The notes under the pieces were generated by a model that was not told the DNA's origin, ran no database searches, and saw nothing but the letters and a program-made list of their open reading frames with translations. Of a stretch of 64,000 nt of DNA, positions 1-57,962 are shown piece by piece. The DNA comes from Bugula neritina (lineage: Eukaryota; Bryozoa; Gymnolaemata; Cheilostomatida; Bugulidae): positions 4,995,733 through 5,059,732 of the forward strand of contig OZ037772.1 in the NCBI GenBank assembly GCA_964035545.1. The letters run 5' to 3'. Both the position numbers and the translations under genes were made by a program. The first letter of the stretch is position 1; each line of letters opens with the position of its first letter.

Positions 1-111
1 TTATATGCTAGGGAATAAGTTCAGTGAAGGATTACCTGATGTATTCACATCAATGACATCTCTAAGAAAGTTGGATATTGAGGACTGTGGACTACCAACT
101 CTAGCTGAGAG
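1..111 (+). CDS. LRR exon E1 (5' part outside the window)
   Basis: This is the 3' part of an LRR-pair exon. It reads in frame from the window edge (YMLGNKFSEGLPDVF..., then a second repeat with LDIEDCGLPTLAE) and ends GAG AG before the donor gttagtaaa, in phase 2 like all later array exons. Its 5' splice border lies outside the window, so the array continues to the left. Confidence 0.8.
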
Positions 112-2518
112 GTTAGTAAAAGCAACTCAATATGAAACCCAAATAAAATGCTTTTATCTATTGTATACGACATCTAGGATTTGCCAGCAGTTCTTTAGAC
201 TTAAATTTTTTGCTTGTAAATAATTTCTGAAATTTTTTCAAACCTGTTAAATTAGTCTTGCTTTATTCTATATAATATGCAAACAAATACTAGCCAATGA
301 AAAGGTTCTATGTAATATCATGACATGTGGTTATAGATTATATAAGACATGTTACAACATTTTAGTTCCCTATATTCCTTAACGCTTGAATTACATAAAA
401 GTTAATGAGTTTAGTTCAGTATATGATTTTTCTCTAAAAGATATACAGCTTACGCTCTATTATACAATATACAATATACATACCTGCAGACTAAAACTAG
501 CCATTGATCTGACAACATACTGTATAATTGATATGTAAAGTATACAGTCTGTTATTAAATACCACAAAAATATTAAATTTGACAATCTTTAAATTTCTAA
601 GTATAAAAAAAACCAATTATCTTAACGAATCTACTTTAATTATTGAAAATAAATTATTTTACTATGTGAATAAAATTTTAGTTGTAAATTTTATGCTTTA
701 CATGGTTTTGAAAAAAAATCATGCTGCAGTACATGTTTCACATGCATATGTAATATATACTGTATATTAATACTAATGTATTTTCTTCCAACTTCGTTTT
801 TCATGGGATAAAGTTTATATCTCAATCGGCAATTTTCTATTAGAATTACATTACATTACATGCCTGAAATAGTATATGTGCGTTCAGTTCCCTGCTACCA
901 TAAAGCAATTCACGTGCGCTAACCGTCATGATGTCATAACTTCAATCACAGGAGGCTGTAATCCTACATGCCCCTCCCTTCAAATAGGAGCACATTGCAC
1001 TTAACAGACATCAAATGGAAGTTGTAATTCTACATGCCCCTCCTTTTAAATAGAAGGACATCACAATTACTAGACATAACAAATTATTATAAGCGCATTA
1101 CAGGTAGCCTTCTATGAAATAAAATATTAGAATATATAATATCGTTATTTATGCAGTTATGTGTTACAAGAAAACCTAATCATCATGTTGTTTAGAGAAA
1201 AAACAGGTGTGACGGAGTTATCAACTTGCACTTCGTTCGTTTGTAACTCATAAACATTTATATAGTATATCAGCTGCACACAGTTGTAACTTTTTGACTG
1301 ATAAATTTGCAGAAAGTTGCTTTTTATAAGTCCTCAGATATTTCTGCAAATTAATAGATATCAGATGAAAGCATATCGCACGAAATAGACATCAAATTAT
1401 CATAAGCACATTACAGGTAGCCTTCTGTGAAATAAAATATTAAAATATATATTATCATTAATTATGCAGTTACAAGAAAGCCTAATATTCATGTTGTTCA
1501 AAGTGAAAACAGTTATGCCAGAGTTATCAAATTGAATTTCATTAAATTGTAACACATGAATATTCATATAGTATAATGGCTGTACACAGTTGTAATTTTT
1601 GACTGAGAAATTTAAAGAAAATTGCTTTTTTTGAGTTCGCAGATATTTCTGCAAATTAGACATCAAATGAATATGAACTAAGTATATGCAGCTTTTTATG
1701 AAATAAATTACAAAAAAAATATTATCGTTATTATCATGGTAGGTCAGGTCAGGTAGAATGCCTGCTACCGGATAACCATGAAAGTTGAAGTTGAAAAGGA
1801 TTTGGACAAAAATATAGAGTGTTGGGATGAAAATAATAATGACGTAGAGCAAATGTGGAAAATATGGAAGAAAACAGTGTTTCCAACTGCTAGTGAAGTG
1901 GTTGGGAAGCAAGGACGTAAACATCCGGATTGGTTGATTGAGAAGAGAAACAAGGCAAGACAAGCTTTCTTCTAGTGTATTACTAAATTGAGAAGAAAGA
2001 TTAGCTCAAAAGTGCAGAGCGGTTTTCAGAGATATACCGGAGAAATGAAAAAGAAACGGTGGAATAATTCTTGCTATATTGCGTATAATATGCAAATAAA
2101 TACAAGCCAATAAAAAGATTATATGTAGTATTATGACATATGATTCTAGAATATATAAAAAATGTTACAATACTTCAATTTCCTATATTCCTTAACGCTC
2201 GAATTAAGTAAAAGTTGATGAGTTAAGTTCAGTATATAGTTTTTCTTAGAGGATATACAGCTTTAGCTCTATCATATCATAATATACCTGCAGACTAAAA
2301 CTAGCCATTGATCTGACAACATAACGTATAATTGATAACTGAATTATACAGTTTTTTATTATATACAACTCAATACAGCTCGAGCTTCAATATGTAATAT
2401 CCTGCAGACTGAAATCAATTCTGTTGAGTTAGTGATATATAATGCTAAAGTAATTATTTTGTATTATGTATCTTAAGTATTATATATCTTGTATTATATA
2501 ATTTATGATCTGCTACAG
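112..2518. other. Array intron E1-E2 with relics
   Basis: The segment contains intron sequence shared with the rest of the array, for example the block near 482-535 beginning cctgcagactaaaact. At about 840-890 the sequence that normally precedes an exon joins directly to sequence found deep in the next intron, so one exon appears deleted. A roughly 306-bp tandem duplication covers about 1076-1380 and 1382-1690. A LINE scrap lies at 1680-2070 and is listed separately. I see no other gene. Confidence 0.6.
1680..2070 (+). pseudogene. Internally deleted LINE fragment
   Basis: The stretch containing EVVGKQGRKHPDW and EKRNKARQAFF matches the linker between endonuclease and reverse transcriptase of the larger LINE at 38830-42970 (same words at 40440-40560). 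The preceding 1690-1780 matches the flank at about 38690-38810, so roughly 1.5 kb of the longer copy is missing here. A TAG follows the Phe codons at 1971. It is non-functional. Confidence 0.65.
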
Positions 2519-2659
2519 TATGTCTAACCTGAAGAATCTGGAGACTCTTGATATGTCAAAAAATAACTTCAGTAAGGGTTTATCTGATGTATTCACATCA
2601 ATGACATCTCTAAGAGAGTTGAATATGTGGTACTGTACACTACAAACTTTACCTGCGAG
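2519..2659 (+). CDS. LRR exon E2
   Basis: This is a 141-bp phase 2-2 exon after acceptor ctgctacag and before donor gtttttaaa. It encodes MSNLKNLETLDMSKNNFSKG, then LSDVFTSMTSLRELNMWYC..LQTLPA: two LRRs of about 25 and 22 residues. Its distinctive residues are K at the SxN position and WYC in the second strand. The acceptor (tacag|T instead of tatag|C) and donor differ slightly from the array consensus, but phase and length are conserved. The function is that of the whole receptor described at 43418. Confidence 0.85.
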
Positions 2660-3402
2660 GTTTTTAAAAGCAACAATCATAGGGAATACATATAAAATGT
2701 TTTTATCTATAGTACACAACATCTAGAATTTGCCTGCAGTTCGTTATAATTAAATTATTTGCTGCCAAATAATTTCTGAAAATGTTTCAAATCTTTTCCA
2801 ACTAATTATTCTAAAATTATTAAGCTGCACCATCAACATTAATTACAAAAACCTTCAGGCTATTCAGTTGAAAACTGAAAGTTTAAAGTGAGCTCTTTTG
2901 TTTATACACTTAAAAGGCTGTATATGGTCCATTGCGATAGCGCAAGGGTTACTGATTTGTGGTTAAATGTGGTTAAATAATTATTATAACGTGTGGTTTA
3001 ATGGAAAATATATGTAAGAAGCTGTACAATATTTTAATTTAAAAAGCTTGGAATGAGTAAAAGTTAGCAAGTTGAGTTTCTTGGCTTTTTGAAAAATAAG
3101 AAGCTCAAGCTTCAATATGTAACATCCTGCAGACTAAAATGAGACTTTGATCTGGCAATATAATGTATAATTCATATTTAAGTAAGTCATACAGTATTTT
3201 GTTATACTATAAGCTGTAATAAACTTAAAAGTTTTAGAAACAATTAATCTGCATTTTGAAGTATGAAACAAAAATGAATAATTTTTAAAAAATACCAGTA
3301 ATGATAGAAAACATTATATACTAATGAAATGTAAACTTTATAGCTTGTATTCAGCTTAAGGTCTCTCAAAGAAGATGTCATGCAGCATATTTCACACACA
3401 TA
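2660..3402. other. Array intron, interrupted at about 3402
   Basis: This is array-type intron. Between 3390 and 3402 it contains ttcacacacatatg, which precedes exon units elsewhere (for example 19428-19440), but the expected continuation is replaced by foreign sequence beginning ggtcattccacgcc. The intron therefore appears broken by transposon insertion. A piggyBac-like MITE fragment lies at 2803-2954. Confidence 0.55.
2803..2954 (+). mobile_element. 3' fragment of the TTAA-type MITE
   Basis: The fragment matches the last ~180 bp of the complete element at 34917-35605. Shared words are attaagctgc, gttgaaaactg, aagtttaaagt and atatggtccattg, and it ends cgcaagggtta. It is truncated on the left, and the right TTAA is not intact. 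Confidence 0.6.
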
Positions 3403-6250
3403 TGGGTCATTCCACGCCAACTCAACAAGGTTTTTGAGGATTTTCACTGACACGTCTCAGATTTTTTCGAGACTTTAGTATGGTATTTCAAAATATGTCC
3501 ATTAAAAAAACATCAAATATTAGCCCTCAATTCCTAATAGTTTTGTAGTTATGGCACTTTTTGTGAGCAAAGATTGGTAAAAAATCGGTACTTTTTTATG
3601 GGTTTCGGTACCGAAGGTCAACTTCATGGGTTTATATCTCGGAGACGATTCAAGACAAGCTTTGGCAGTTTTTCAAAATTTTCAATTTTCAGGCACTTAA
3701 AACTCACCTTTTACAAATAGGTATGACCTTGATATTTCCAGCACCTAACAACTATATTATATATATTACAATAAAAAAGTTTCAGCTTTTTACTGGCATA
3801 GGTTTCATCAGAATTGTGTGTTGAAATCCAAAAATTTTTAGAATTATATGCTATTTCATCAGGAGAAAACTCAATGTGGGTATAAATGAATTTTTTTAAA
3901 AATGATTTCATTTTAAAGATGTTGGTATATATTATGTTATATTAAAAACTGAACGTTTGTATATCGTTCCTTCATAGGAAAATTTTGGATTAAATTGACG
4001 CATTATTTTCGATTTTCGCCTATGTTTAAAACTACACTCTATACAGTTACTAAACATGTAAAAAGTCATAAAAAATACCAAAATTGTTTACATATTACCT
4101 GCAATAATTTTCATAACATTTAAATTTAATTTGGATATCAGTAATCTTTATCCTTCATAAAATTGATTAAACTAGGTTCATTTTAGTTAAAACCGATAAG
4201 CTGTTAGAATTTAAAAGCACAATAGATTTAAATCTAATAAATGAGAAATTTTTTTTTTATAAATACCATTTATAATTGAATGGCATATTTATGAAAGTTT
4301 GCACAAATCTTTTACATAAAGCCTGAATAATATCCATGAGAGGAAGGTTGCATCGTATGCCTGTAGGTAGTGCTTCTTTCCATTGAATGTAATCGGTTTC
4401 TTAACATAACAGAGTACACATTGTTTTGGTGCCCAGCCTTTATCCTCCAGGGAAGGCCAGTGAAATGAGTGGGTAAGTCCATAGAAGTGCATACAATTAA
4501 TGAGCATTCATTTTCTTCCCAAAATTTGGTTAGGACACAACCTACTCACCAGTTATAATACGTGCATCTGTTGAAATATTCTACTTTTAGGCGAACAAAT
4601 TTTACCATGTTTGCATAAAGTTCACCTTAGGAGAAAACAGCAGTTTGTATTGTTGTATCATTTGCTGATATTTTCTTGGCAGTCAGTTCTTTGCTAACTG
4701 TAAGGGTAAAAAAATGATATTCACAGGTACCAGGCACGGCCTTTGCAAGTGAGAAGCGAGAATATTCTGAGATACGGGAATTATTAGTGATAGAGAAAAA
4801 AAGTCACATTTTTATATGTGGGATGAGCCCCACTGAAACAAGTCTTGGGAATTTAACAAATGTCTGGGAGTTGCTGCTTGCAAAAAATCTGCTAGCAGCT
4901 TTTCTTTTAATCGGTCCACCTACACCATCACAGGCATTTATGTCATGACTGGTTGAAAAAGAGTTCCACTAAGCATGAAATCTAAAATCATCTTCTTGAG
5001 ACACGAAATTCGCATTTTTTTTAAATTCTTATATTGGGCAGCTAGCTGCTCCGTCAGAGAAATAATAAATTTTCTTCAAGTGGGGGACATTTTCTTCACA
5101 AGATTCACGACTGTTTTCTAAAACATCCTGATAGGAACATATGTAATGTTGCAAACAGTCACCTATCATACACATGCAGTAATTAGGTTTAATCTCTCAA
5201 TCTTCGATAGGATATGTCACAAAGGGATTTACGGCAGGTTAGGAATTTTACCAAAGAAACCACTGCACCGCATTGTAACATTTAGTCCTTCGAAACAAAG
5301 AATTTTCAGGCTATAGCATTTGTGATGGCTGCTGTCATTTTTGGTCTCTTGGGGGTCATCCAAAATTTTTACTTTTTGATGTGGATGAATAGAGTAGGAC
5401 TTTGTGATCACATTGCACTTTAAATTTTTAAAATCAGTCAAATAGAACTAGAAATATGCCTGGTTATACACACAGCGGTCCACAACAAACGACTTTTATT
5501 ATTGCGAGTAACTAACAGTCAAAGTTCGGCGACTCATAATTGTACTAAATTCGTTGTTTATCTACCTAGCAACAGTGTCTTCAATCAGCTCCATCGGCCC
5601 AAAAGTTAGTTAACAGGGGTGGTTTTTTATGCTGATCATGAAAATATTAATTTAAAGTTCATATCTGCAATATCCTAATCAACATTTCAGAGTTGAGTTC
5701 AGTATAATGACAACATTTTGATGATTATCCTGAAAGATTAATACTATAATGCCACGTGGTTTCATAACAAAATCAAACTCTTTTGTATCACTGTTGTCAC
5801 TAAGTTCATCATTACTATTATCACCACTACTCTTCAGTCCTTGTCCTTAATTTTCAATGTAGAAACATTATTTTAAGTTGTCAATATCTGTTATCTATTA
5901 ACTTGCAGCGCGATCCAGTCGCCATGTTTATTATTAGTAACAATTCCCAGTCAAATTATACTTGACTACGTTGCACGCTACACTATGCCGCTATTTTAAC
6001 TGTTGTTAAAGGTCGCGCTATTATGCTCTAATCACGTGACCAGCTTGCCAACCATGGAATGGCTCATTAAAACACCAATCATTCCTAAACCATAGCAGAT
6101 ATCACAAAACCGATTGGACAGCTAGAAAGAGCACATGTTAATTGACTATTACACACTAAAAGCTAAAATTGACCTATTTATGAGAACTATAGATAAAACC
6201 CCTTATAACTAACAATAGCGAATAATGCCAAGAGACCAAAACTGACGGGA
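3403..6250 (-). pseudogene. Decayed transposon-type gene, family unassigned
   Basis: Minus-strand translation shows pieces of one protein recurrent in invertebrate repeats. From N to C: a segment at 5229-5441 with HPHQKVKILDDPQETK; a segment at about 4880-5110 with IYYFSDGAAS, then STSHDINACDGVGGPIKRKA; and a C-terminal segment at 4289-4507 with MHFYGLTHSFHWPSLEDKGW. I recall these FSDGAAS / TSHGK-DGxGG / SFHWP words from repeat-derived predicted proteins but cannot name the superfamily. Stops and frameshifts separate the pieces. The left end begins ggtcattccacgccaactc and is fused to array intron. I found no matching inverted end on the right, so the element is truncated or the limit at ~6250 is approximate. 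Confidence 0.5.
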
Positions 6251-6465
6251 GCCATCACATTTTATATCTATAGACCTAAATATGTAAATAGCAATATTTA
6301 TGTAAGATTTTCTGTTTTATCAAGAAATTGAAGTTTTTTTTCTAATTTACTTTATACATAGTTAAAGAAACAATTGCTAAAGCCTGCATATCTCTTTCAC
6401 GCCACCCTTCACTCACTCACCCACACCCTCATCCACCCATCATCTCTTACCTTCTTTCTGTAAAA

Positions 6466-6536
6466 CACCACACGCACACGCACACGCACACGCACACGCA
6501 CACGCACACACACACACACATACACACACACACCCA
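6466..6536. repeat. (CA)n / (CACACG)n microsatellite
   Basis: A run of cacacg and caca units is visible directly. It lies among AT-rich sequence and has no coding content. Confidence 0.95.
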
Positions 6537-6667
6537 CACTGTAAGAAACCTGCTCTCTCAGTTTAGCTGGCTTGCTAATGATAAAATACATTTTGTCAGT
6601 ATGCTTCATGAAGGTATCTCTACTTGATAAATTTACAGGTTGGAGCGGGTGGTGATTGTTTGGTAAA

Positions 6668-6838
6668 GGAATATATATACATATATATATACATATATAT
6701 GTATAAATATATATATAAATAAATATATACATATGATGTGATATATGATATGATATAACGTGGTATATGATATAATATGATATAATGTGATATATGGTAT
6801 GATATGATGTGTAAACTGGTATATATATATATATATAA
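6668..6838. repeat. TA-rich microsatellite block
   Basis: Imperfect (TA)n with gatatgatata-type units. Its right edge is exactly where the Penelope-like copy begins. Confidence 0.9.
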
Positions 6839-8439
6839 ATTGGTTTGAAAACATCAAGAACAAAAGCAGTAAGTCGTTTATTACTTTTGATATATGCAAT
6901 TTCTACCCATCAATAACCGAAGACCTCCTTTACAAAGCCCTTTCCTTTGCGTCACACTTTACCAACATACCAACTGAACACCAGGAAATAATTTTACACT
7001 CTAAAAAGTCCATCCTTATCTCCAATGGTGAACAATGGACAAAAAAACACGACAGTAATTTTGATGTCACTATGGGAAGCTATGACGGCGCCGAAACCTG
7101 CCAACTAATTGCAATATACTTGCTTAATCTATTAACTACTGAAATGAACATAGAATGTAATTTAGGCCTGTCTAGAGATGATGGATTCATAGTTTGTGAA
7201 GGAACACCTAGACATACAGAACAGAACAAAAAACAAATTTGCATTTTTTTTAGAAAATTTAATCTTTCAATCACAATAGAAGCCAATAAGAAAGTTGTAA
7301 ACTTCCTAGATGTAACATTTAACTTGACTAACCAATCCTATAAACCCCATACAAAACCTGGAAACACTATCCTCTATGTTCATAAACAAAGTGACCACCC
7401 ACCTGCAGTATTGAAAAACATACCAGAAAATATTAATAAAAGACTTAGCTCACTATCCTCCAATGAAGAAGAGCTTAACACCACCATACAACCGTACCAA
7501 GAAGCACTATCAAACAGCGGATATGACTATAAATTAAAATATAACCCGACACCCAAATCCAACAACAATAATAGAAATAGAAATAGAAACATTTTGTGGT
7601 ACAACCCACCTTTTAGTTCAACAGTAAAAACCAAAATAGGGAAGAAATTTCTTCAAATCATCATCAAATGCTTTCCACCATTCAACCAACTAAGTAAAAT
7701 TTTCAATAGGAAAACCATAAAAATTAGCTATTCATGCATGCCCAACATGAAAAATATTATTGATGGCTCGAACCATCACAAACTTAAAACCACACACACC
7801 CCCACTACCGCTACTAAACTAAATAACACACAATGTAACTGCAAACAACCTTCCCACTGTCCATTAAATGGTAAATGCTTATACAAAGGCGTAATATACC
7901 AAGCAACTGTAACAAGACATGACAATAATTCCAGCCATTCATACATAGGACTCTGTTCGACTACCTTCAAAACCAGATTCAATAACCACAAAGCCTCTTT
8001 TCTACATGCAGATAAAGCCAACAGCACGCAACTCAGCAGACACATCTGGAATTTAAAAAACAACAACACGAAATTCAGCTTAAAATGGAATATTTTAAAA
8101 AATTGCAAATCATACTCAAACCTAACCAACAGATGTAACTTATGCAACTATGAGAAGTATATGATTTCAAAACAACCGGAATTATCTTCCCTCAACAAAC
8201 GAAAAGAGCTTTCCACCACATGTAGACATAAACGCAAATTTTTACTTGCGCACTTAACAGACGCTAGTTAAAACATTCCAGCGTAGTAATACACTAACAA
8301 TACTAATTTCAAAACAAAATCACTCAAGCGTACACACAACGACCTGATGATCGTAGCTCGCACTACGTGAAACAATATTGTATAGTCAATAAATGAAGAT
8401 CTAAATTTATTTTTATATCCAAAATTGTATTAGTACCAA

Positions 8440-8443: not shown

Positions 8444-8512
<69 letters not shown>
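8441..8512. repeat. (TA)n microsatellite
   Basis: An almost pure TA run directly abuts the 3' end of Penelope-like copy A. Confidence 0.95.
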
Positions 8513-8514
<2 letters not shown>

Positions 8515-19606: not shown

Positions 19607-19747
19607 CATGTCTAATCTGAAGAATCTGGAGACTCTTGATATATCATGGAATAACTTCAGCGAAGGATTACCTGATGTAGTCACATCAATGACATCTCTA
19701 AGAGAAATGAATATTAGTTTCTGTGAACTACTAACTCTACCTGAAAG
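19607..19747 (+). CDS. LRR exon E3
   Basis: A 141-bp phase 2-2 exon after tttactatag and before gttagtaag. It encodes MSNLKNLETLDISWNNFSEG and a second repeat with MNISFCELLTLPE. Distinctive residues are W after LDIS and ISF before the Cys. It opens the main array and is followed by the type-A intron carrying the tRNA-like SINE. Confidence 0.9.
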
Positions 19748-21017: not shown

Positions 21018-21158
21018 CATGTCTAATCTGAAGAATCTGGAGACTCTCGCGGTATCACGGAATAACTTCAGTGAAGGGTTACCTGATGTAGTCACATCAA
21101 TGACATTACTAAGAGAGTTGAATATTAGTTCCTGTGAACTACAAACTCTACCTGAGTG
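21018..21158 (+). CDS. LRR exon E4
   Basis: A 141-bp phase 2-2 exon after gctatag. It encodes MSNLKNLETLAVSRNNFSEG, with AVSR replacing the usual DMSx, then LNISSCELQTLPE. It ends GAG TG rather than GAG AG before gttagtgag, so the residue across the next junction would be Cys or Trp instead of Ser. It is otherwise intact. Confidence 0.85.
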
Positions 21159-24199: not shown

Positions 24200-24340
24200 C
24201 ATTTCTAATCTGAAAAATCTGGAGACTCTTGATATAACAGGGAATAACTTCAGTAAAGGATTACCTGATGTATGGACATCAATGACATCTCTAAGGACGT
24301 TGGATATGAAAAACTGTGAACTACCAACTCTACCTGAGAG
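24200..24340 (+). CDS. LRR exon E5
   Basis: A 141-bp phase 2-2 exon after tttactatag and before gttggtaaa. It encodes ISNLKNLETLDITGNNFSKG, then PDVWTSMTSLRTLDMKNCELPTLPE. The initial Met of other exons is Ile here, which fits the exon being internal rather than a translation start. The variable positions read TG and KN. Confidence 0.9.
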
Positions 24341-24951: not shown

Positions 24952-25092
24952 CATGTCTAATCTTAAGAATCTGGAGACTCTTGATACGTCAGAGAACAAC
25001 TTTATTAGAGGATTACCTGATGTATTCACATCAATTACATCTTTAAGAAATTTGAATATGCGATACTGTGCGCTACCAACTTTACCTGAGAG
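24952..25092 (+). CDS. LRR exon E6
   Basis: A 141-bp phase 2-2 exon after tttactatag and before gttagtaac. It encodes MSNLKNLETLDTSENNFIRG and a second repeat with LRNLNMRYCALPTLPE. It is intact and is followed by a type-B-like intron. Confidence 0.9.
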
Positions 25093-26955: not shown

Positions 26956-27073
26956 CATGTCTAATCTGAAAAATCTGAAAACTCATTGAAGGATTACCTG
27001 ATGTAGTCACATCAATGACATCTCTAAGAGAAATGAATATTAGTTCCTGTAAACTACTAACTCTACCTGAGAG
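26956..27073 (+). pseudogene. LRR exon E7, broken by a 23-bp deletion
   Basis: The acceptor tttactatag and the flanking intron match the array, but the exon is 118 bp. A 23-bp deletion after AATCTGAAAACTC removes the loop of the first LRR and shifts the frame, giving an immediate TGA. The donor is also altered (gttattaaa). Inclusion would truncate the protein, so it should be skipped or dead. Confidence 0.85.
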
Positions 27074-28328: not shown

Positions 28329-28469
28329 CATGTCTAATCTGGAGAATCTGGAGACTCTTAATATAGCAAGAAATAACTTCAGTGAAGGATTGCCTGATGT
28401 ATTCACATCAATGACATCTCTAAGAAAGTTGCATATGCGGTACTGTAAACTACCAACTCTACCTGAGAG
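28329..28469 (+). CDS. LRR exon E8
   Basis: A 141-bp phase 2-2 exon after tttactatag and before gttagtaaa. It encodes MSNLENLETLNIARNNFSEG and a second repeat with LRKLHMRYCKLPTLPE. Distinctive residues are NIAR and HMRYCK. Confidence 0.9.
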
Positions 28470-28945: not shown

Positions 28946-29086
28946 CATGTCTAACCTGAAGAATCTGGAGACTCTTGATTTGTCACATAATAACTTCAGT
29001 GTAAGACTACCTGCTGTAGTCACATCAATGACATTACTAAGAGAGTTGAATATTAGTTTCTGTAAACTACCAACTCTACCTGAGAG
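28946..29086 (+). CDS. LRR exon E9
   Basis: A 141-bp phase 2-2 exon after ctgctatag and before gttagtaaa. It reads MSNLKNLETLDLSHNNFSVR, then LPAVVTSMTLLRELNISFC and KLPTLPE with no stop. VR and PAV replace the usual EG and PDV in the repeat loop. Confidence 0.9.
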
Positions 29087-30852: not shown

Positions 30853-30993
30853 CATGTCTAATCTGAAGAATCTGGAGACTCTTGATATGTCACATAATAA
30901 CTTCAGTGAAGGATTACCTGATGTATTCACATCAATGACATCTCTAAGAGAGTTGAATATTAGTTCCTGTGAACTACCAAATCTACCTGGGAG
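30853..30993 (+). CDS. LRR exon E10
   Basis: A 141-bp phase 2-2 exon after tttactatag and before gttagtaag. It encodes MSNLKNLETLDMSHNNFSEG and a second repeat with LRELNISSCELPNLPG. It is intact and followed by a type-A intron. Confidence 0.9.
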
Positions 30994-31080: not shown

Positions 31081-31980
31081 CTACAGGTTTTAAAGTTCTA
31101 TAGTTTTACAAATTTTCTGCGTTTCAAAAGTGCAATATATTAGGTATTATAGAATCACAAGTACCAACTGTGTTACATACTTCCCATTGAAAGTCAACCA
31201 CCGGCTTGCCAGCTGACGCACTAACTATTACACTACAAGGGTAATCCTAAAACTCCATGCAACCAGTTATTCTAAACTCTGCTGGTTCCCTTACTACTCA
31301 TTCAGTTTAGGCTTCCCGGGCCTCTCAACTCTCTTGGCGTACTACCAAAATGCTATACTAAATGTGAAAGAGTTTGCTAACAATTACACATGGGTCGTTA
31401 GGTAATCTCAACACCACACCAAGCTGTTCACATGTGCATTCAGCTCCCTGCTACCATAAAGCTATTCACGTGCACTAACCGTCATGATGTAAGAACTTCA
31501 ATTACAGAAGGTTCTAATTTTACATGCCCCTCCTTTCAAATGGAAGGATATCACAATTACTAGACATCAAATTTTTATAAGCGCATTACAGAGATTACTT
31601 GATTAGCATGTGAATAAAATCTTAGTTGTATATATTATATGCTTCACTTGGTCTAATACATGAGCTGCCTACTTGTATGACACAGCAGATGTGCACACCC
31701 AAAATCTACTACAATATTACTAAATGATGTTTCAATTACTATATTATGTTTACTATAGCATGTCTAATCTGGAGAATCTGGAGACTCTTGATATGTCAGG
31801 GAATAAGTTCAGTGAAGGATTACCTAATGTATTCACATCAATGACATCTCTAAGAACGTTGAATATGCAGATCTGTGAACTACCAACTCTACCTGAGAGG
31901 TTAGTGAAAGCAACTCAATATGAAATACAAATAATATGTTTTTATCTGTAGTACACGATACCCATTTCTTTATACTTAAA
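31081..31980 (+). repeat. Recent duplicate block carrying E11 (copy at 32907-33807)
   Basis: About 900 bp including exon E11 and both flanks are almost base-for-base identical to 32907-33807 (E13), offset 1826 bp. Elsewhere in the array, copies differ at many sites. This implies a very recent duplication or gene conversion. Confidence 0.85.
31759..31899 (+). CDS. LRR exon E11
   Basis: A 141-bp phase 2-2 exon after tttactatag and before gttagtgaa. It encodes MSNLENLETLDMSGNKFSEG and a second repeat with LRTLNMQICELPTLPE. The encoded protein is identical to that of E13. Confidence 0.9.
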
Positions 31981-32680: not shown

Positions 32681-32821
32681 CATGTCTAACCTGAAGAATC
32701 TGGAGACTCTTGATATGTCACAGAATAAGTTCAGTGAAGGATTACCTGATGTATTCACATCAATGACATCTCTAACTACATTGTATATGCAGATCTGTGA
32801 ACTACCAACTTTACCTGAGAG
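32681..32821 (+). CDS. LRR exon E12
   Basis: A 141-bp phase 2-2 exon after tttactatag and before gttagtgag. It encodes MSNLKNLETLDMSQNKFSEG and a second repeat with LTTLYMQICELPTLPE. Its closest relative is E15, 3447 bp downstream. Confidence 0.9.
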
Positions 32822-33584: not shown

Positions 33585-33725
33585 CATGTCTAATCTGGAG
33601 AATCTGGAGACTCTTGATATGTCAGGGAATAAGTTCAGTGAAGGATTACCTAATGTATTCACATCAATGACATCTCTAAGAACGTTGAATATGCAGATCT
33701 GTGAACTACCAACTCTACCTGAGAG
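33585..33725 (+). CDS. LRR exon E13
   Basis: A 141-bp phase 2-2 exon after tttactatag and before gttagtgaa. Its protein is identical to E11. The exon lies inside the duplicated ~900-bp block. Confidence 0.9.
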
Positions 33726-34504: not shown

Positions 34505-34646
34505 CATGTCTAATCTAAAGAATCTAGAGACTCTTGATATGTCAGGGAATAAGTTCAGTGAAGGATTACCTAATGTATTCACATCAATGACATCTCTAAA
34601 GAACGTTGAATATGCAGATCTGTGAAATACCAACTCTACCTGAGAG
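34505..34646 (+). pseudogene. LRR exon E14, broken by a 1-bp insertion
   Basis: It has the same borders as its neighbours but is 142 bp. An extra A in tctctaaagaacg (tctctaagaacg in E17) shifts the frame in the second LRR. The first LRR reads MSNLKNLETLDMSGNKFSEG normally. Its sister copy E17 lacks the insertion, so the break follows their duplication. A sequencing error cannot be excluded. Confidence 0.8.
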
Positions 34647-36127: not shown

Positions 36128-36268
36128 CATGTCTAATCTGAAGAATTTGGAGAGTCTTCTTATGCCATGGAATAAGTTCAGTGAAGGATTACCTGATGTA
36201 TTCACATCAATGACATCTCTAAGATTGTTGTATATGCCGATCTGTGAACTACCAAGTCTACCTGAGAG
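36128..36268 (+). CDS. LRR exon E15
   Basis: A 141-bp phase 2-2 exon after tttactatag and before gttagtgag. It encodes MSNLKNLESLLMPWNKFSEG and a second repeat with LRLLYMPICELPSLPE. It derives from the same duplication as E12 but has several amino-acid changes concentrated at the variable positions (LMPW, LYMPI). Confidence 0.9.
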
Positions 36269-37031
36269 GTTAGTGAGAATGCATTAAATGAAATGTTCAT
36301 TAGTGTGAAGGATATAGTTCTTCAATAGAAGTACTTTTTTTTAATAAAATAATCTACAGTTTCTAAAGTTCTACAGTTTTACAAACCTTCTGCATTTCTT
36401 AAGTGCAATATATTAGGTTCACGGTAGAATCACAAGTACCAACTGTGTTACAAACTTCCCATTAAAAGTCAACCACCAGCTTGCCAACTGACCCACTAAC
36501 CATTACACTACAAGTGTAATCCTAACACTCCATGCAACCAGTTATTCTAAACTCTGCTGGTCCCCTTACTACTCATTAAGTTTAGGTTTCCCGGGCCTCT
36601 CAACTCTTTTGGCGTACTACCAAAATGCTATACTGAATGTGAAAGAGCTTGCTAACAATTACACATGTGTCACTAGGTAATGTCAACACTACACTAAGCT
36701 GCTCACATGTGCATTCAGCTTCCTGCTACCATAAAGCTATTCACCTGCACTAACCGTCATGATGTAAGAACTTCAATTACAGGAGGTTCTAATTCTACAT
36801 GCCCCTCCTTTCAAATAGAAGGAAATCACAATTACTAGACATCAAATCTTTATAAGCGCATTACAGAGATTACTTGATTAGCATGTGAATAAAATCTTAG
36901 TTGTGTATTTTATGCTTCACTTGGTCTAATATATGAGGTGCACACTTGTATGACACAGTAGATGTGCACAGCCATAATCTACTACCATATTACTAAATGA
37001 TGTTTCAATCACTATATTATGTTTACTATAG

Positions 37032-37172
37032 CATGTCTAATCTGGAGAATCTGGAGACTCTTGATATGTCACAGAATAACTTCAGTAAAGGATTACCTGA
37101 GGTATTCACATCAATGACATCTTTAGGAGAGTTGCATGTGAAGAATTGTAAATTAGAAACTCTACCTGAGAG
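37032..37172 (+). CDS. LRR exon E16
   Basis: A 141-bp phase 2-2 exon after tttactatag and before gttagtgaa. It encodes MSNLENLETLDMSQNNFSKG, then PEVFTSMTSLGELHVKNCK and LETLPE. Its flanks match E13 but its coding sequence differs at about ten residues. Confidence 0.9.
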
Positions 37173-37963
37173 GTTAGTGAAAGCAACTCAATATGAAATA
37201 CAAATAAACTATTTTATCTGTAGTACACGACATCCAGGATTTGCCCGCATTTCTTTATACTTAAATTTTTTGCTGCCAAATAATTTCTGAAAATTCTTCA
37301 AATCTGTAAAAGTATTCTTGCTATATTGTAAATAATATGCAAATAAATGCAAGCCAATGAAAAAGATTCTATGTAGTATTATGACATATGGTTCTAGAAT
37401 ATATAAAAATGTCACAATACTTTAATTTCCTATATTCCTCATCGCTTGAAATAAGTAAAAGTTGATGAGTTAGGTTCAGTATATAGTTTTTTTCTTGAAA
37501 AGATATACAGCCTAAGTTCTATTATATAACATACCTGCAGACTAAAACTAGCCATTGATCTGACAACATAACGTATAATTGATATCTAAATTATACAGCC
37601 TTCTATTAGATACAATAAAAATTGTTAATTTGACATTCTTTAAATTTTAAAGTATAACAAAAACAAATTATTCTAGCAAATCACCTGTAATTGTTGAAAA
37701 CAATTTCTTTTATATGTGAATAAAATTTTAGTTGTACATCTTATGCTTTACACAGTTTTGAAAAAAGGCTCATGCTGCAGTACATGTTTCACATGCATAT
37801 GTAATACCTACTGCTTATCTACTAATATATTTTATTCCGACTTCATTTTCCATCGAATAAATGTATGCATGTCAATTGGCAATTTTATGCTAGAATTACA
37901 TTGCTTTAGCTTAAGATGGTTTTATTACTATATGATGTCTCAACTGGTGTATGTTTACTATAG

Positions 37964-38104
37964 CATGTCTAATCTAAAGAATCTAGAGACTCTTGATATG
38001 TCAGGGAATAAGTTGAGTGAAGGATTACCTAATGTATTCACATCAATGACATCTCTAAGAACGTTGAATATGCAGATCTGTGAACTACCAACTCTACCTG
38101 AGAG
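37964..38104 (+). CDS. LRR exon E17 (last small LRR exon)
   Basis: A 141-bp phase 2-2 exon after tttactatag and before gttagtgag. It encodes MSNLKNLETLDMSGNKLSEG and a second repeat with LRTLNMQICELPTLPE. It is the unbroken sister of E14. It is the last array exon before the ROC-COR exon, 5.3 kb away across a LINE insertion. Confidence 0.9.
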
Positions 38105-38829
38105 GTTAGTGAGAATGCATTAAATAAGAAGTTCATTAGTGTGAAGGATATAGTTCTTCAATAGAAGTACTTTTTTTATTAACATTTTCTACAGTTTTAA
38201 AGTTCTACAGTTTTTAAAGTTCTTCAGTTTTACAAACCTTCTGCATTTCTTAAGCGTAATATATTAGGTTCACAGTAGAATCACAAGTACCAACTGTGTT
38301 ACATACTTCCCATTGAAAGTCAACCACCGGCTTGACAGCTGACGTTCTAGCCATTACACTACAAGTGTAATCCTAACACTCCATTCAACCAGTTATTCTA
38401 AACCCTGCTGGTTCCCTTACTACTCATTCAGTTTAGGCTTCCCCGGCCTCTCAACTCTCTTGGCGTACTACCAAAATGCTATACTGAATGTGAAAGAGCT
38501 CGCTAACAATTACACATGTGTCACTAGGTAATCTCAGCACTACACCAAGCTGTTCACATGTGCATTCAGTTCCCTGCTACCATAAAGATATTCACGTGCG
38601 CTAACCGTCATGATCTCATAACTTCAATTACAGGAAGTTGTAATTTTACATTTTATCTGCAGACATATTGGCAAATTAATAAACATCAAATGAATATGAA
38701 GTCAGTATAAGCAGCTTTTTATGAAATAAATTACAAAAAAATTATTATGATCAATAATATTATCATTATTATCATAGTAGGTCAGTTCAGGTAGAATGCC
38801 TGCTACCAGACAATTATGAAAACCGGTAC

Positions 38830-41800
38830 AACCTAATTCATGTGGCTAGTGGTCAGCGACTAAACTAACAAGTGAGTGTGACTGGACATCTTTAGGTCTG
38901 TGGTGGGGGGGGCAAGCCAGTCGGTGTGAGGTGACACACACTCCCAGAAGTGCAGGGATTAACATACCTCTCTCTTAGTCAGTCCCTGCCACGTAAGTGC
39001 TATAGGTCATGCAAAAGCCAGTAGTACCTTCACTTCTTTGCAAGCCGTTTTCATGAAATGGTACGTCAATAGCACATTCATGCCGGCTCGAACATCGCTC
39101 AGAATAAGAAGATCTGCACTGATCTGTTCTTACTCTGGCAGTCAGCGTACAGTGTGCTTGGAGACAGAAGGAAAAGGGAAGAGATTTTCCCTTATATGTA
39201 ACAGAATAAAATGCACAAACACTAATTGATCTATCACAAGCACAGAATCCAGAAAGACAGACAGCTCTTGTAGCCATGGAGATGGACAAATATGGCATCA
39301 TTGCCAGGCTATGATAGTTTAATAGATCATAGGTATTTCTTCTACTAGAGTGGAAAGTCAGCTGATGAAAGTTGAGAAGCAGGAGTAGGACTTGCCGTCA
39401 AAAAAGAAGATTGCTGCCACTTTGAAGGGCAAACCAACTCCTGTGAATGATTGAATCATGATGATGAAACTTCCTTTTCAAAAGAGATTTCACGCGATTA
39501 CTATGACGAATACTGAAGAAGTAAACAAACAGTTCTACATTTATCTGAGAGACACAATCCATTGTGTTCTAGCTAATGATATATTAACACTGAGTGGTAA
39601 TTTTGTTGCAAGGATAGGCTCAGTTTTTGAGAAATAGAAAGGAGTACTTGGTAGTCATAGTGTAGGTAAGTGCAATAGAAATGGAGAGTTGCTTTTAGCT
39701 CTCTGTTTAGAGTACAGTCTTGTGTTAGCCTAGGGCCACACGGTGCGTATTTTTGCATGCGAAAATTGAAATCACAAGTAGCAAAGGTGTCCACTGTATG
39801 CGTTGAGAAAACATTCGCACTTGTCGCTCTGCATTTTCAACGCAAGTGCGAATCGTCTCTGTCGTCGTCACCTAATTGGCTGGTAGTTATTCAGCGAGCC
39901 CAATTTCTTTATTTAGTGCTATATTCCAGCAAATTGCGTTTTATTGAAAGCGAGTGCGATTTAAAAATGAAAGCTTTATTTATCACGCATCACTGACGCT
40001 ACAGTGGACACCTTTGCTACTTGTGATTTTAATTTTCGCATGCGAAAATACGCACCGTGTGGCCCTAGGCTTAACTAATACCATCTTCAAACACAAGGAA
40101 TCACACAGGAGTACATGAATGCTTCCACAAGTTAACAAATGGAACTTACTGGATTACATCATTCTCAGGCGAAGGAATTTGAGTGAGGTTTTAGTTACTC
40201 GAGCTGTAAGAGGAGCAGATTGTGGCACAGATCATGTAATGCTAAAATCAAAAATATAAGGATTAAAAGATAAAACATTGCAAGAAAGCCACCAATTAAA
40301 CTAAGCACTGTTATGCTGAAAGATCCAGAAAAAACAGAACAACTTAAAAAGAAATTGAATAAGAATATAAAGTGTTGAGATGAAAATAATAATGAGATAG
40401 ACAAATGTGGAAAATTTTGAGGAAAACGGTGTTTTCAACTGCTAGTGAAGTGGTTGGGAAGCAAGGCCGTAAACATCCGGATTGGTTTAATGAGCATGAT
40501 GAGCTACTACGGCAGTTGATTGAGAAGAGAAACAAGGCAAGACAAGCTTTCTTCCAGTGTAATACCAGAGTGAAAAGAAAGAGCTGCTTAAAAGTGCAAA
40601 GCAGTCTTCAGAGGTATACCAGAGAAATGAAAAATAACTGGTGGGAAAAAAAAGCAATAGAACTCCAAATGTCAGCAGACAGAAAAGACATGAAAGCATT
40701 ATATTTAGGCTTAAAAGAAGTTTATGATCCGAAATCAAGAGTAACGATTCACCTACGAGACCATAATGGAAACACAGTTTTACACGAGAAGGAAAAAATA
40801 TTAGAAATAATATCTGATCACTTCAATCCTTTGCTCAACATACCAGGCGAGCTGGATAAAGCAGCAAAAAACATAATGCAAAGGTCACGTGTTGCACTTT
40901 TGGATGGTCCGCCCAATATGGATGAGCGTGTGTCGGCAATTAGTTCATTGCGGGATGGAGAAGTTGTTGGCAGAAATGGTATTCCATTTGTGGTATGAAA
41001 GCATGCTGGTCAAAAAATGGCAGGGTGTCTTTACAATACAGAATGTATGGGACACCTAGACGGTACCACCAGACTGGACAGAAGCAAGCATTTTTCAATT
41101 TTTAAGAAAGGCAATATGAAAGTAAACGGGAATTATCGGCACATATCTTGTATCTATTGTAGGCAAGATTTTCTCTTGCATACTATCGACTAATTGCACA
41201 TACTATCCAAGAGGTGCTAGTGGAGTCTCAGTGTAAATTCAGGAGTGCGGAAAGAAGTCCAAGTGTAAAAGAGGTGCACAGAACAAAATATGCTACTTTT
41301 CGCAGTATTTTTTGACCTCAGTAAGGCATTTGATATTGTATATATTGCAAGCCTTCGGCAGGTCCTTAAAAGGTTTGGCTTCCCAGACAAGTTTATTTGC
41401 AATAATGAAGCACCTCATACAGGCATGCAAGTATATGTACCAATGAGTAGTTCTACTGCAAATGGAAAGCTTGGAAAAGGTATATATGTGAACACTAGAA
41501 AAGAAGCAGACCTGTTTGATGTAACTCATTTCAACTTTAAAACCAAAACCTTTACCGAGTTAGAGACTTGTTAAGGAAATGACAGGTTGTTTTTTTAAGC
41601 TTTTCCGGAGTGTGTGGGATACCACGACTGTTCCACAACACTTGAGCAATGCAAGCATTATCCCATTATTTAAGAAAGGCAATACACCAGGGGTGGGAAT
41701 TACTGGGGCATATCCCCTCTATCTATTGTAGGCAAGACTCTTTCCCATTGCTATTAAATCGGCTAAATGCCCATATTTTCTCAAAGGTGGTACTAGAGTC

Positions 41801-42970
41801 TTAGTGTTTTTTCAAGAGTGGAAGAAGTACAATTGATATGGTTTTCTGCTTGAAGGAAGTGCAAGAGAAGTGCATAGAACAAAATATGCCACTTTGCATA
41901 GTATGTTTTGATTTCAGCAAGGCATTTGACACTGTTTCTAGAACAGGCTTTTGGCAAGTCATTAAAAGGTTTGGCTGCACAGAAAAGTTTACCGGCAATA
42001 CTGAAGCTTTTTATACAGGCATGCAAGCAAATGTGGCAGTGAACGGTTCCATCTCAAATGAATTTGCAGTAACAAATGCTTGAGGTTGTCTTTAAAGAAT
42101 TAGAAAAGAGTCGGATCTGTTTGATGTTAGTCATATCAAGTCAAAATTTAAGACCACTACTGAGTTAGTGAAAGACTTGCTATTTGCTGGTGATATAAGT
42201 ACTTCAGTTTTTTTTTGTTCTCATGCTATACAGACTCCGGTCAACAGATTTGCCAATGCTGCAAAATATTGTAATCTTCAAAATTAACATCGACAAGACA
42301 GAAAGCCTCTACCAGCTTGCAAAATTTGAAAATGAAGCATATCAGCCAAACCCTATAGCCATCAATGGATAACTTTTAAAAAAGTGTCAAACCTTCAAGT
42401 ACTTTGGAAGCACAATAGCAGTGAGCACTAAACAAGATAATAAATTTATCTGAGAATTGGAAGCACTAGTGCAGTGTATGAAAAGTTGAGAACCAGACTT
42501 TGCACTGATTGTTAATTTTTAATCAAAGTCAAGTATCAGATGTACCATACTATAGTACTCGCTGCCTTACTGTATGGTGATGAGACTTGGAACATACACA
42601 GTGTGCAAGTAGACAGACTGCAAGCATATGTCATGCAATAAATATGCTCAATCATGGGTGTATTTTAGAGAGACAAGATTACTAACCAAAAAGTACAAAA
42701 GAGAGCTAGCTTAGCATCTTCAAAATCTGTCCTTATTCAAATAAACTTGAAATAGCTAGGGCATCTCGAAAAGATAGGTCATAGCCACTTACCTAAACAA
42801 CTTTTTTATCCGCAGCTAAAAAAAAGTAAACAAAGCCAAGGGAAGCCAATATTGAGATTTAAAGACACTGTAAAGCGAAATATAAAAAAGTTGGACATGT
42901 ACAGAGATAGCTGGCAAAGGAAGGGTTAATGTAGATATGGATGGAGACGTTTGATCAAACTAAATTGAAA
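38830..42970 (+). pseudogene. Decayed RTE/BovB-like LINE
   Basis: Pieces appear in the order of a LINE ORF2. The endonuclease start (RTALVAMEMDKYGIIA) lies near 39260-39305, followed by further endonuclease words (GKSADESREAGVGLAVKK, EVNKQFYIYLRDTI) to about 39725. A Harbinger-like MITE interrupts, then TNTIFKH and WNLLDYIILRR...TRAVRGADCGTDH (40080-40255). The linker WWEKKAIELQMSADRKD...LKEVYDP is at 40400-40998. Two reverse-transcriptase motif-A segments follow (FDLSKAFDIV near 41310 and FDFSKAFDTVSR near 41910), then FAGD near 42185, and QTFKYFGSTI near 42390. Numerous stops and frameshifts are present. The element fills the intron between E17 and the ROC-COR exon. The clade is judged from the endonuclease/linker words only. 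Confidence 0.7.
39728..40070. mobile_element. Harbinger-like MITE inside the LINE
   Basis: The 343-bp element has ~75-bp inverted ends: gcctagggccacacggtgcg on the left, and its reverse complement at the right. It is flanked by TTA on both sides (39725-39727 and 40071-40073). A 3-bp TTA/TAA duplication fits PIF/Harbinger-type elements. Removing it restores continuity of the LINE endonuclease, so it inserted later. Confidence 0.75.
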
Positions 42971-43005
42971 AGAGTCATTGTCGCACCGACAGACTGCTCT
43001 GATGA

Positions 43006-43051
43006 CGACAGTGATGGTGATGATGATAATGATGATGATGATAATGATGAA
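43006..43051. repeat. GAT/AAT trinucleotide microsatellite
   Basis: A short gatgatgataatgatga run lies just beyond the LINE relic and shows no coding support. Confidence 0.8.
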
Positions 43052-43417
43052 AATTCTCCTTATTACTTTTATTGTTGTTTTAAGATCATAGAAAACCAGA
43101 TATTTAATTTGTTCAAAAAAAACAGTTAGGTTTGATGTATCTATAACATTATCTTTTATAACATTTTGCTGTATTTAGTTTACTTCCAAGTGATGCTGAA
43201 AAATTTCTACAGTAAAACAGTTGCATAGAGCTGAGGTTTTTTAAATGACGTGTTTAAGAAAAATTTCCAGTGATAAGTTTGCAGACATCTTTGCAAATGC
43301 ATTATCGTCTGAAATGGGTGAAATATATTTTTTTAAAGATCTTCAAAAGCTATATTCAGAAGCAACTTGTTTGCTAGAATCTGACTTATTATATATCATA
43401 TTTTATCTGAATTACAG

Positions 43418-45339
43418 TTTGCAGTATTTGGAGAATCTGGAAGTTCTGGACATTCAGCGCAACAACATGACTATAATTCCAGAGGCGGTCTGCAACTTGA
43501 AAAAATTACGTAAAATAGATGTTTTTGGATGTGAAAGTCTAACCACTCCCCCTTATGAAGTCTGTACAGAAGGATTATCAGCTATCAGACAATACTACAG
43601 AGATCTTGCTAAAGGTAAAGGAAAAAGTCTTCCCCTAGTCACCATTGCCGTGATTGGTAACACAATGGCAGGGAAAACGAGTCTCATCAGAACATTGCAG
43701 AGTGAAGAGAGAAAAAGAGTGCTGACAAATCGTGGACCTGAGGTTGCCGTTGACGAAACAACTAAAGTTTTTAAAGTCGAAGAGTTGAAAGTAAATAATA
43801 CAGTTTTGAGACTAATTGACATGGGAGGACAACCAGTGTATCACATGACATACCAGCTAACACTTAAACAAAACTGCATGCCGATAGTAGTGGTGAACAT
43901 GGAGCATTATCATCAGCTGGCACAAGAAAAGGGAGACAGAGAGGCTCTGAGAAGACTGGCTTTTGATTGGCTGGCTCATTTATATGTGGCAAATCCTGGA
44001 ATTAGACAACCGAAACTGGTTTTTACTCACAAAGACAAGTTTGATGAGGAGAATTTCACAAAGCTGACTTATAATTTCACTAACACAGCTGATCTACTGA
44101 AAGATGAAATTATCAGAGAAGAGAAACAACTAGACCAAAGCTTAGCAGAGATAGAACATTTCCATCAACACAAAGAGCTGTTTCTGCGTGAGGATATCTA
44201 CTCAGTTGGAAAAGAAGATACTTTTCAAGTTTTTGAGAATATGAAATCTGCCATTTTTAATTCAGCTCAAAAATTTGTAAAGGTATTGCCAAAACTATGG
44301 GAAGATGTAAATGAGAAGGTTTTAGGATTGCAGACAGCATTCAGTACATTTGATGAGATACTTCATGCAGTGCAACAAGTAGGTAGAAGTATCACACCTG
44401 ATCAGCTCACCACAATCCTCACCTACATGCATGATTGTGGTAAGGTCTTGTGGTACAAAGATATCAAGGAGTTGAACTTGATTATTTTTCACAAAATTGA
44501 GGAAGTTACTAAACTACTCAAAGTCTTGTGTCGTCATGATAAAGATGCGTGCCATACTTGGCAATCAAGTTTTCAACCATTGCGATTGACTAATGGAGCC
44601 TTTCTTGAAGAAGAACAATTTGGAAAACTTGTAAGAGATTTCTTGTCAGCAGGAATCATGGGAAGCCAACTTCTAGAATATTTATTCAAAGCTGAGACAG
44701 CATTCTTTGATGAAAATGCATACCTACTTGCTGTCACTTTGCTGCAGAAAATCAGCATTATCTACGGACCAGTTGATCTGGAATCAAGGAGCTGCTTCAT
44801 TGTTCCCTTCTACTCTACTGATTACTTTGAAAACAATCTTACTACTGATGAAGACGTCATTCTCCATGCTGAAATCATGTTCAAAGGTCTCTCAATTCCA
44901 CAATATGTCTACCAGCAGATGAGTGTTGTTGTCCTACAAATGTTCCCGGATGAGACAAGTTTTTCCCTTGTTAGAAAAAACGGAGTAAAGGTTTTCCACG
45001 ATGACATCTCGGTGCGCCTTGTCCATGATGGTCTTTCAAGGAAGGCAGATGTTACAGTGTCTGGAGCAACAGAGAAAATCACAAACTGTTGGAAACACAT
45101 GGTCAGCATAACCAGGCAAATATCCAAGGAGATTCGGCGTTCATGGCCTGCCAGCAGAATGGTACACAAGTCTAGTTGTACGCACTGCATTCTGAAAGGT
45201 GAATCCAGTCCTGAATTTCAGGTTACTCCCAGCTGGTGTCTTGAATTTCAAACTGACGAACCATATCATCAGTTTCAGAAGGAGATGGTGACAGTTCTCT
45301 GTAGAGGAGATAAGATTTTGAGTCCACTTGTTCATCCCT
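43418..45339 (+). CDS. ROCO core exon: LRR pair, ROC GTPase and COR
   Basis: This 1922-bp exon starts after ctgaattacag in phase 2 (one base completes a Ser codon), exactly compatible with every array exon, and ends before the strong donor gtaagt in phase 1. Residues 1-48 are a final LRR pair (LQYLENLEVLDIQRNN; KIDVFGCESLTTPP). The ROC GTPase has the P-loop GNTMAGKT (80-87), DMGGQ (134-138, G3) and THKD (203-206, G4). A COR domain follows at about 290-430 (KVLPKLWEDVNEK; LTYMHDCGKVLWYKDIKEL; FLSAGIMGSQLLEYLF), then a C-terminal region with a CTHC pair. ROC-COR modules are GTP-dependent switches or dimerisers. The layout resembles the MFHAS1 branch of Roco proteins. No kinase domain follows; the next exons encode a linker and a caspase. 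An upstream in-frame ATG at 43245 could give an LRR-array-less isoform but may be chance intron reading. Confidence 0.9.

Positions 45340-56832: not shown

Positions 56833-57962
<1,130 letters not shown>

What the first reader, a model, noticed from the sequence alone, without database searches (positions are those of the whole stretch)
1..45339. Combinatorial LRR exon array feeding one ROC-COR exon
Fourteen complete intact LRR exons are exactly 141 bp, start with one base and end with two bases of a split codon, and share acceptor and donor words. The ROC-COR exon starts in the same phase. Any number or order-preserving subset of LRR exons can therefore splice to it in frame, giving from 2 to more than 30 LRRs. 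This resembles Dscam-like diversity, but on an intracellular ROCO protein. The array runs beyond the left edge, so the repertoire is larger than seen.
Basis: partly seen in the sequence, partly recalled or inferred. Interest (0 to 1): 0.92.

Follow-up and report, generated by a model that had tools for sequence, protein, structure and literature searches.

The report
Bryozoan caspase receptors with LRR arrays
In a bryozoan (a small colonial sea animal), a gene carries about twenty interchangeable sensor exons in front of a GTPase switch and a cell-death protease, and dozens of similar genes fill the genome, so this looks like a family of intracellular immune-type receptors, although no RNA was available to show how the exons are combined.

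Summary
Fourteen intact 141-bp, phase-2, two-LRR exons lie where stated; the array runs 10 kb further left: 22 copies, 20 intact, two frame-broken. The assembly matches Bugula neritina tzBugNeri2.1, chromosome 8. It has a family: 65 of 67 listed ROC-COR exons have a caspase match within 8 kb 3'; the genome gave one NACHT and no NB-ARC match. Variation concentrates on the concave LRR face while Roc and caspase are conserved. Frame-compatible exons permit combinatorial splicing but do not prove it; no transcript was available. The broken exons keep splice sites, so a transcript holding every exon would be nonsense: skipping, later starts, or reliance on the other haplotype follows. Brown-algal ROCO genes are the closest precedent (exon arrays plus splice variants). 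New here: an animal, two-LRR exons, a fused caspase.

The parts
1..111 (+). right part of a 141-bp LRR exon that starts 30 bases left of the window (C8:4995703)
2519..2659 (+). intact two-LRR exon
19607..19747 (+). intact two-LRR exon
21018..21158 (+). intact two-LRR exon (ends TG, so the join codon is Cys)
24200..24340 (+). intact two-LRR exon
24952..25092 (+). intact two-LRR exon
26956..27073 (+). frame-broken LRR exon, 118 bp, acceptor and donor kept
28329..28469 (+). intact two-LRR exon
28946..29086 (+). intact two-LRR exon
30853..30993 (+). intact two-LRR exon
31759..31899 (+). intact two-LRR exon, identical to 33585
32681..32821 (+). intact two-LRR exon
33585..33725 (+). intact two-LRR exon, identical to 31759
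34505..34646 (+). frame-broken LRR exon, 142 bp, acceptor and donor kept, stop inside if included
36128..36268 (+). intact two-LRR exon
37032..37172 (+). intact two-LRR exon
37964..38104 (+). intact two-LRR exon, last of the array
43418..45339 (+). exon with the last two LRRs, Roc GTPase (GNTMAGKTS, DMGG, THKD read by eye) and COR-type region
45442..45531 (+). linker exon
45790..45974 (+). linker exon, acidic
46203..46367 (+). caspase exon 1 (PRGTALIINNE)
46628..46847 (+). caspase exon 2 with catalytic His (GSHG) and Cys (QACS)
46942..47082 (+). caspase exon 3, inter-subunit stretch
47401..47510 (+). caspase exon 4, small-subunit start (YSAWRFSDCGSLFI)
47768..48121 (+). last exon: end of caspase, tail, stop codon

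Best explanation
This is one gene of a large bryozoan family of intracellular receptors of the form (two-LRR unit)n - LRR cap - ROC GTPase - COR - caspase. The LRR solenoid senses a ligand, ROC-COR acts as a nucleotide-controlled dimer or oligomer switch, and the fused caspase is the output (a one-chain counterpart of an NLR plus its recruited caspase). The sensor grows and changes by tandem duplication and unequal exchange of intron-exon-intron units of about 0.9 and 1.8 kb. Several LRR exons in a row are spliced onto the ROC exon, and at least the frame-broken ones are skipped or lie upstream of the used start, so transcripts of differing LRR number are likely. Shown: exon anatomy, frame, caspase, family, selection pattern. 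Inferred: splicing pattern, sensing, switch and caspase activation, immune role.
For: Exons. One continuous frame over 14 LRR exons plus 8 further exons with GT-AG introns, 1720 codons with a single stop, at the end. Caspase Pfam 1.8e-33; best solved relative CED-3, 7e-19. Caspase match within 8 kb 3' of 56 of 67 listed ROC-COR exons with the list, against 0 of 67 on the 5' side and 0 of 67 on the other strand; a second caspase search supplies 9 of the 11 missing, 65 of 67 in all. 143 of 150 listed LRR exons have a same-strand ROC-COR exon within 70 kb 3' (control, ROC on the 5' side: 51 of 150, since loci cluster). Database gene predictions also join Roc and caspase: Bugula neritina EB796_002463 (Roc over cut-off, partial caspase) and Watersipora subatra P0044 (LRR, full caspase, Roc 26.2 bits just under its cut-off of 27). 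Window against its paralog: dN/dS Roc 0.17, COR 0.34, caspase 0.16 (only 11 changes), LRR cap 1.32 (17 changes). The seven longest repeated blocks inside the array, introns included, are 86-95% alike. Concave codons dN 0.40 against 0.10 elsewhere.
Against: No transcript of this gene was seen; the last protein search listed no Bugula protein made of these units joined (best 120 of 944 hits listed, none over 40% identity). The first coding exon was not found. Pfam COR-A does not match the window protein itself, only 9 of 27 aligned sequences. Concave dN/dS is 1.11 with bootstrap range 0.84-1.44, so diversifying selection is suggested, not proven. The broken exons could also mean that this haplotype is weakened. 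Immune function is inference.
Confidence: 0.58

Rival explanations
1. One reading: Dscam-like combinatorial splicing, each cell or individual choosing many different subsets of LRR exons to build a large repertoire from one gene.
For: All 20 intact exons join in frame in any order-preserving subset; near-identical splice words; 40 different proteins among 41 intact exons of three arrays; splice variants with differing LRR exons reported for brown-algal ROCO genes.
Against: No RNA. Frame compatibility is a by-product of duplication. One array only, no separate clusters with one-of-many choice as in Dscam (recalled). Donors not weaker than those of the downstream exons. Mouse and pig Nlrp3 showed no LRR exon skipping in the cells tested.
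Confidence: 0.17
2. Constitutive receptor: one fixed set of LRR exons is spliced in each gene; the array is only a record of rapid exon duplication, and diversity lies between genes, haplotypes and individuals.
For: Tandem unit duplications, two identical exons; three neighbouring arrays differ in copy number: 22 here, 11 in the 27 kb read of array A, 13 in the 20 kb read of array B; mouse and pig Nlrp3 keep modular LRR exons without detected skipping; predicted Watersipora proteins carry such units in a row, two in P0044 and more in P0033 (by eye).
Against: A transcript with all exons would be frame-shifted: 2 of 22 copies here and 2 of 11 in array A are broken while keeping splice sites, yet Roc and caspase stay conserved. 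A fixed set must therefore avoid them, for example by starting 3' of 34646, which leaves three exons.
Confidence: 0.2
3. Decaying gene: the locus is a non-functional duplicate and the array is debris.
For: Broken exons, element insertions in introns, no first exon found.
Against: Eight 3' exons intact over 3.2 kb of coding sequence; the paralog keeps the same frame (one GC instead of GT donor and a 1-base length difference near its stop); dN/dS 0.16-0.34 in Roc, COR and caspase; 20 of 22 LRR exons open.
Confidence: 0.05

Closest known systems
Brown-algal LRR-ROC-COR (ROCO) genes with shuffled LRR exons (Zambounis 2012, recalled and cited in PMC11378527, not read; Teng 2024, PMC11378527, abstract and sections 11 and 15 read)
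   Same: LRR-ROC-COR order, tandem LRR exons of one length in phase 2, concave-face variation, large gene family, proposed immune receptors
   Different: There 72-bp exons with one LRR and splice variants documented; here 141-bp exons (138 and 144 bp at two other loci) with two LRRs, an animal, a fused caspase, no transcript evidence. Probably convergent (inference, no tree made)
Vertebrate NLRP genes (NLRP3; PMC6642158, passages read)
   Same: Each exon codes for two LRRs and preserves the frame; alternative splicing reported for human NLRP3; works with caspase-1
   Different: NACHT switch instead of ROC-COR and caspase recruited rather than fused (both recalled); 171-bp exons
LRRK1/LRRK2 and bacterial Roco (PDB profile matches over the LRR-Roc part; that the chains named Rab family protein are Roco is recalled)
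   Same: LRR-Roc order
   Different: Kinase or no such effector instead of a caspase (recalled)
CED-3 / caspase-1 / caspase-3
   Same: Caspase domain with His and Cys
   Different: Here preceded by LRR-ROC-COR
Dscam of arthropods (recalled; also mentioned in section 15 of PMC11378527)
   Same: Tandem alternative exons
   Different: Separate clusters with mutually exclusive choice, Ig domains at the cell surface

Membership tests
ROCO proteins | Roc GTPase domain | tested here: met
   Pfam PF08477 3.1e-7, 31.1 bits over cut-off 27; 27 of 27 aligned sequences match at 0.001
ROCO proteins | COR domain after Roc | tested here: inconclusive
   Window protein gives no COR-A match at 0.01 or 0.001, 9 of 27 aligned sequences do; B. 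neritina P0043 has COR-A and COR-B below their cut-offs; structure prediction switched off
ROCO proteins | LRRs before Roc (common, not universal; recalled) | tested here: met
Caspases (peptidase C14) | Domain with catalytic His and Cys | tested here: met
   PF00656 1.8e-33, positions 1-229 of 233; SHG and QAC aligned to CED-3
Caspases (peptidase C14) | Protease activity | not testable with these tools
   -
Brown-algal type exon-shuffled LRR-ROCO | Tandem symmetric LRR exons in phase 2 | tested here: met
   length differs (141 against 72 bp)
Brown-algal type exon-shuffled LRR-ROCO | Positive selection on concave LRR sites | tested here: inconclusive
   dN/dS 1.11 (0.84-1.44) at 10 concave codons, 0.61 elsewhere; 0 of 5000 random sets of 10 codons reach the concave pN
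Brown-algal type exon-shuffled LRR-ROCO | Splice variants with different LRR exons | not testable with these tools
   no transcripts at hand
NLR receptors | NACHT or NB-ARC switch | tested here: not met
   Pfam scan of the spliced 3' part (1061 aa) shows Roc, no NACHT or NB-ARC; the first exon is unknown
Dscam-like hypervariable receptor | Mutually exclusive or combinatorial exon choice in RNA | not testable with these tools
   -

The most novel reading that the evidence does not exclude
Bryozoans lack an expanded NLR set and instead use at least 65 self-contained LRR-ROC-COR-caspase receptors whose LRR exon arrays are spliced combinatorially, giving a cell- or colony-specific repertoire of cell-death receptors for defence or for self/non-self recognition between colonies, evolved independently of the brown-algal ROCO arrays.
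Probability: 0.2. Interest if true: 0.93.

Novelty: new variant of a known kind. Interest (0 to 1): 0.72.

Why it matters
It places LRR-exon-array ROCO receptors, reported in brown algae (PMC11378527), in an animal and fuses them to a caspase, so sensing and cell-death output sit in one chain. It suggests that an animal phylum may have built its intracellular receptor repertoire on ROC-COR rather than NACHT. The splicing question is directly testable with cDNA, and colonial bryozoans offer a natural setting for self/non-self tests.

Tried and rejected
A 2363-residue open frame listed for one ROC-COR hit looked like a spliced retrocopy that would prove exon joining; it was mostly N and proves nothing. 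Weak donors as a sign of regulated exons: 20 LRR donors average -7.4 kcal/mol to U1, seven downstream donors -5.4 to -11.1, mean about -7.6: no difference. (Some downstream positions were off by a few bases; one search replaces them.) First coding exon: sought by an LRR profile over 204 kb, by comparison with array A and with Watersipora N-termini; repeats, short non-coding similarity and the known LRR exons were all that matched. Joined LRR units in a public protein as proof of splicing: none close among the 120 listed hits. dN/dS: the first script stopped at a frame-shifted exon; rerun with 19 different of 20 intact window-array exons, then 40 different of 41 intact exons of three arrays; broken or partial copies were left out (2 of 22, 2 of 11, 1 of 13).

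Searches for earlier reports, seen as listings with starts of abstracts: 20 of 37 papers listed; 20 of 92; 15 of 720; 3 of 3; 12 of 34; 15 of 22; 15 of 49; 10 of 22. No listed title or shown abstract describes bryozoan LRR-ROC-COR-caspase genes; subscription papers and preprints are mostly not in that library. Opened: PMC11378527 (abstract, sections 11, 15), PMC11480708 (passages, section 5), PMC6642158 and PMC8195603 (passages; the latter has nothing on bryozoan ROCO genes in them).
Full report
What is there. A mechanical scan recovers the 14 claimed exons: 141 bp, AG before, GT after, one base + 46 codons + two bases, that is intron phase 2. With the join codon each codes for 47 residues, two LRRs (by eye 24 + 23 residues; consensus MSNLKNLETLDMSxNNFSEGLPDVFTSMTSLRxLNMxxCELPTLPE). 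A DNA profile adds two broken copies and one cut by the edge. In 100 kb fetched to the left the array goes on for 10 kb (six more intact copies including the cut one) and then ends; 40 kb to the right hold none. So 22 copies, 20 intact. The copies and their introns are recent tandem duplicates, in units of about 0.9 and 1.8 kb: the seven longest repeated blocks in the array are 86-95% alike, shorter ones down to 72%; two exons are identical.

Where it is. The longest contig has exactly the length of the longest scaffold of the Bugula neritina assembly tzBugNeri2.1, 35,640,107 bp (against section 5 of PMC11480708), and C8, 13,348,985 bp, fits chromosome 8 of 13.35 Mb. The held genome has 215.85 Mb in 295 contigs, the published one 216.01 Mb in 320 scaffolds, so a few are not held. 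The only named hits of the two ROC-COR protein searches at E below 1e-50 are from the bryozoans Bugula and Watersipora.

The ROC-COR exon ends at 45339 and seven further exons follow with GT-AG borders and matching phases to a stop at 48119-48121. They code for a linker and a caspase: Pfam Peptidase_C14 1.8e-33 over positions 1-229 of 233, best solved relative CED-3 at 7e-19, with the His of GSHG and the Cys of QACS in place. Joined with the 14 LRR exons the frame is 1720 codons with one stop, at the end. Roc matches over its cut-off; the G-motifs GNTMAGKTS, DMGG and THKD are read by eye. COR-A is matched by 9 of 27 aligned sequences, not by the window's; a profile of the exon matches bacterial Roco, LRRK1 and LRRK2 chains of the PDB over the LRR-Roc part, after LRR-only proteins (best 60 of 204 shown).

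A family. A search with the ROC-COR exon lists 67 copies (67 of 241 candidates scored, so a lower bound): the window's own, five at 78-88% and 61 at 45-49% identity. A caspase match lies within 8 kb 3' on the same strand in 56 of 67 (150 of 176 caspase matches were listed and used); of the other 11, nine are supplied by a second caspase search (12 of its 130 rows were checked), giving 65 of 67; on the 5' side and on the other strand the first list gives 0 of 67. Of 150 listed LRR exon matches (150 of 826 candidates scored), 143 have a same-strand ROC-COR exon within 70 kb 3', at 33 loci; the control, ROC on the 5' side, is 51 of 150 because loci are clustered. Two other loci read in part show LRR exons best read as 138 bp (C6:4652815) and 144 bp (C1:33884503), in the same phase. 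NACHT gives one match in the whole genome and NB-ARC none; such searches go exon by exon, so split domains can be missed. Predicted proteins in public databases show the fusion outside this assembly: B. neritina EB796_002463 has Roc over its cut-off, COR-A and COR-B below theirs, and part of a caspase; Watersipora P0044 has LRRs, a full caspase and Roc at 26.2 bits, just under the cut-off of 27; P0045 a full caspase and a weak Roc match well under it. The other eight of the 11 hits carry no caspase annotation.

Selection. Between the window gene and its paralog at C8:4819982 (first seven of the eight 3' exons), dN/dS is 0.17 in Roc, 0.34 in COR, 0.16 in the caspase (7 silent, 4 replacement changes) and 1.32 in the short LRR cap (3 against 14). 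The paralog keeps the frame, but one of its donors is GC and its last exon differs by one base in length near the stop. Among 40 different intact LRR exons of three arrays, ten codons taken from the LRR rule LxxLxLxxN as concave-face positions (chosen by the rule, but after the sequences had been seen) have dN 0.40 against 0.10 elsewhere, dN/dS 1.11 (0.84-1.44) against 0.61 (0.49-0.77), and 0 of 5000 random sets of ten codons reach their pN (for the window array alone: 1.32, 0.91-2.10, against 0.58, and 1 of 5000). Synonymous divergence is also raised at these codons (0.36 against 0.17), so exchange between copies may contribute. Exons differ by 0.149 on average, the 200 bases of intron beside them by 0.415, partly because some introns are unrelated.

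Does splicing vary? The exons can be combined freely, but that follows from duplicating a symmetric exon. Stronger evidence is that broken exons sit inside the arrays with both splice sites kept: 118 and 142 bp here, 140 bp and an in-frame TGA in array A, while the downstream domains stay under purifying selection. A transcript with every exon would not be read through. Hence either some exons are skipped, or transcription starts 3' of the last broken exon, or the other haplotype carries the working gene. I think skipping or alternative starts the most likely (inference). Dscam-like use of many subsets is possible but nothing here demands it.

Precedents. Teng et al. 2024 (PMC11378527; abstract and sections 11 and 15 read) describe brown-algal ROCO genes with 72-bp phase-2 LRR exons, splice variants with different LRR exons and four positively selected sites on the concave side. 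Hoss et al. 2019 (PMC6642158, passages read) describe 171-bp two-LRR exons in NLRP3, a human isoform without exon 5, and no skipping detected in mouse macrophages or pig blood cells. So both exon modularity and its use in splicing are known; the animal ROCO case with a fused caspase was in none of the search listings named in Tried and rejected.

Verdict.

Noticed in passing
whole genome G000; e.g. C6:2.6-6.2 Mb, C1:33.8-35.5 Mb: Dense clusters of ROC-COR plus caspase genes; NACHT one match and NB-ARC none in the genome.
   Followed up: partly
L001 (C58:153163-153507) and other small contigs: A Rab-like frame reads through with TAA and TAG as Gln (NCBI table 6, seven such codons), and other small contigs show similar stops, so the assembly probably holds contigs of a ciliate living with the colony.
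   Followed up: partly
window 53297-54262, strand -: Single open frame with a weak match to rhodopsin-type GPCRs (7tm_1, 0.0022, below cut-off).
   Followed up: no
window 6808-8271 (+), 57223-58002 (-), 60052-60825 (+), 61248-62579 (+): Four frames that look like pieces of Penelope-type retroelements (recalled; no Pfam match); DNA blocks around them are 95-97% alike.
   Followed up: no
window 40106-41453 and L024 656-1993: A LINE-like element (recalled from its text) in the last intron before the ROC exon is also in the paralogous gene at 89% identity, so it is probably older than the gene duplication.
   Followed up: partly
L026 (C6:4643001-4653000): A three-exon block repeats at a distance of 1393 bases with nearly the same exon proteins, a very young array duplication at another locus.
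   Followed up: no
P0058, Watersipora subatra: A protein named SHOC-2-like isoform X2 has the same kind of LRR units, an MGSQHS start that might be myristoylated, and the start of the ROC linker but no Roc: perhaps a truncated form of this family.
   Followed up: no
C8:4901744-4902570 (L009), left of the window: Caspase exons 94% like the window's with no ROC-COR exon listed within 8 kb 5' of them: perhaps a leftover of another gene of the family.
   Followed up: no
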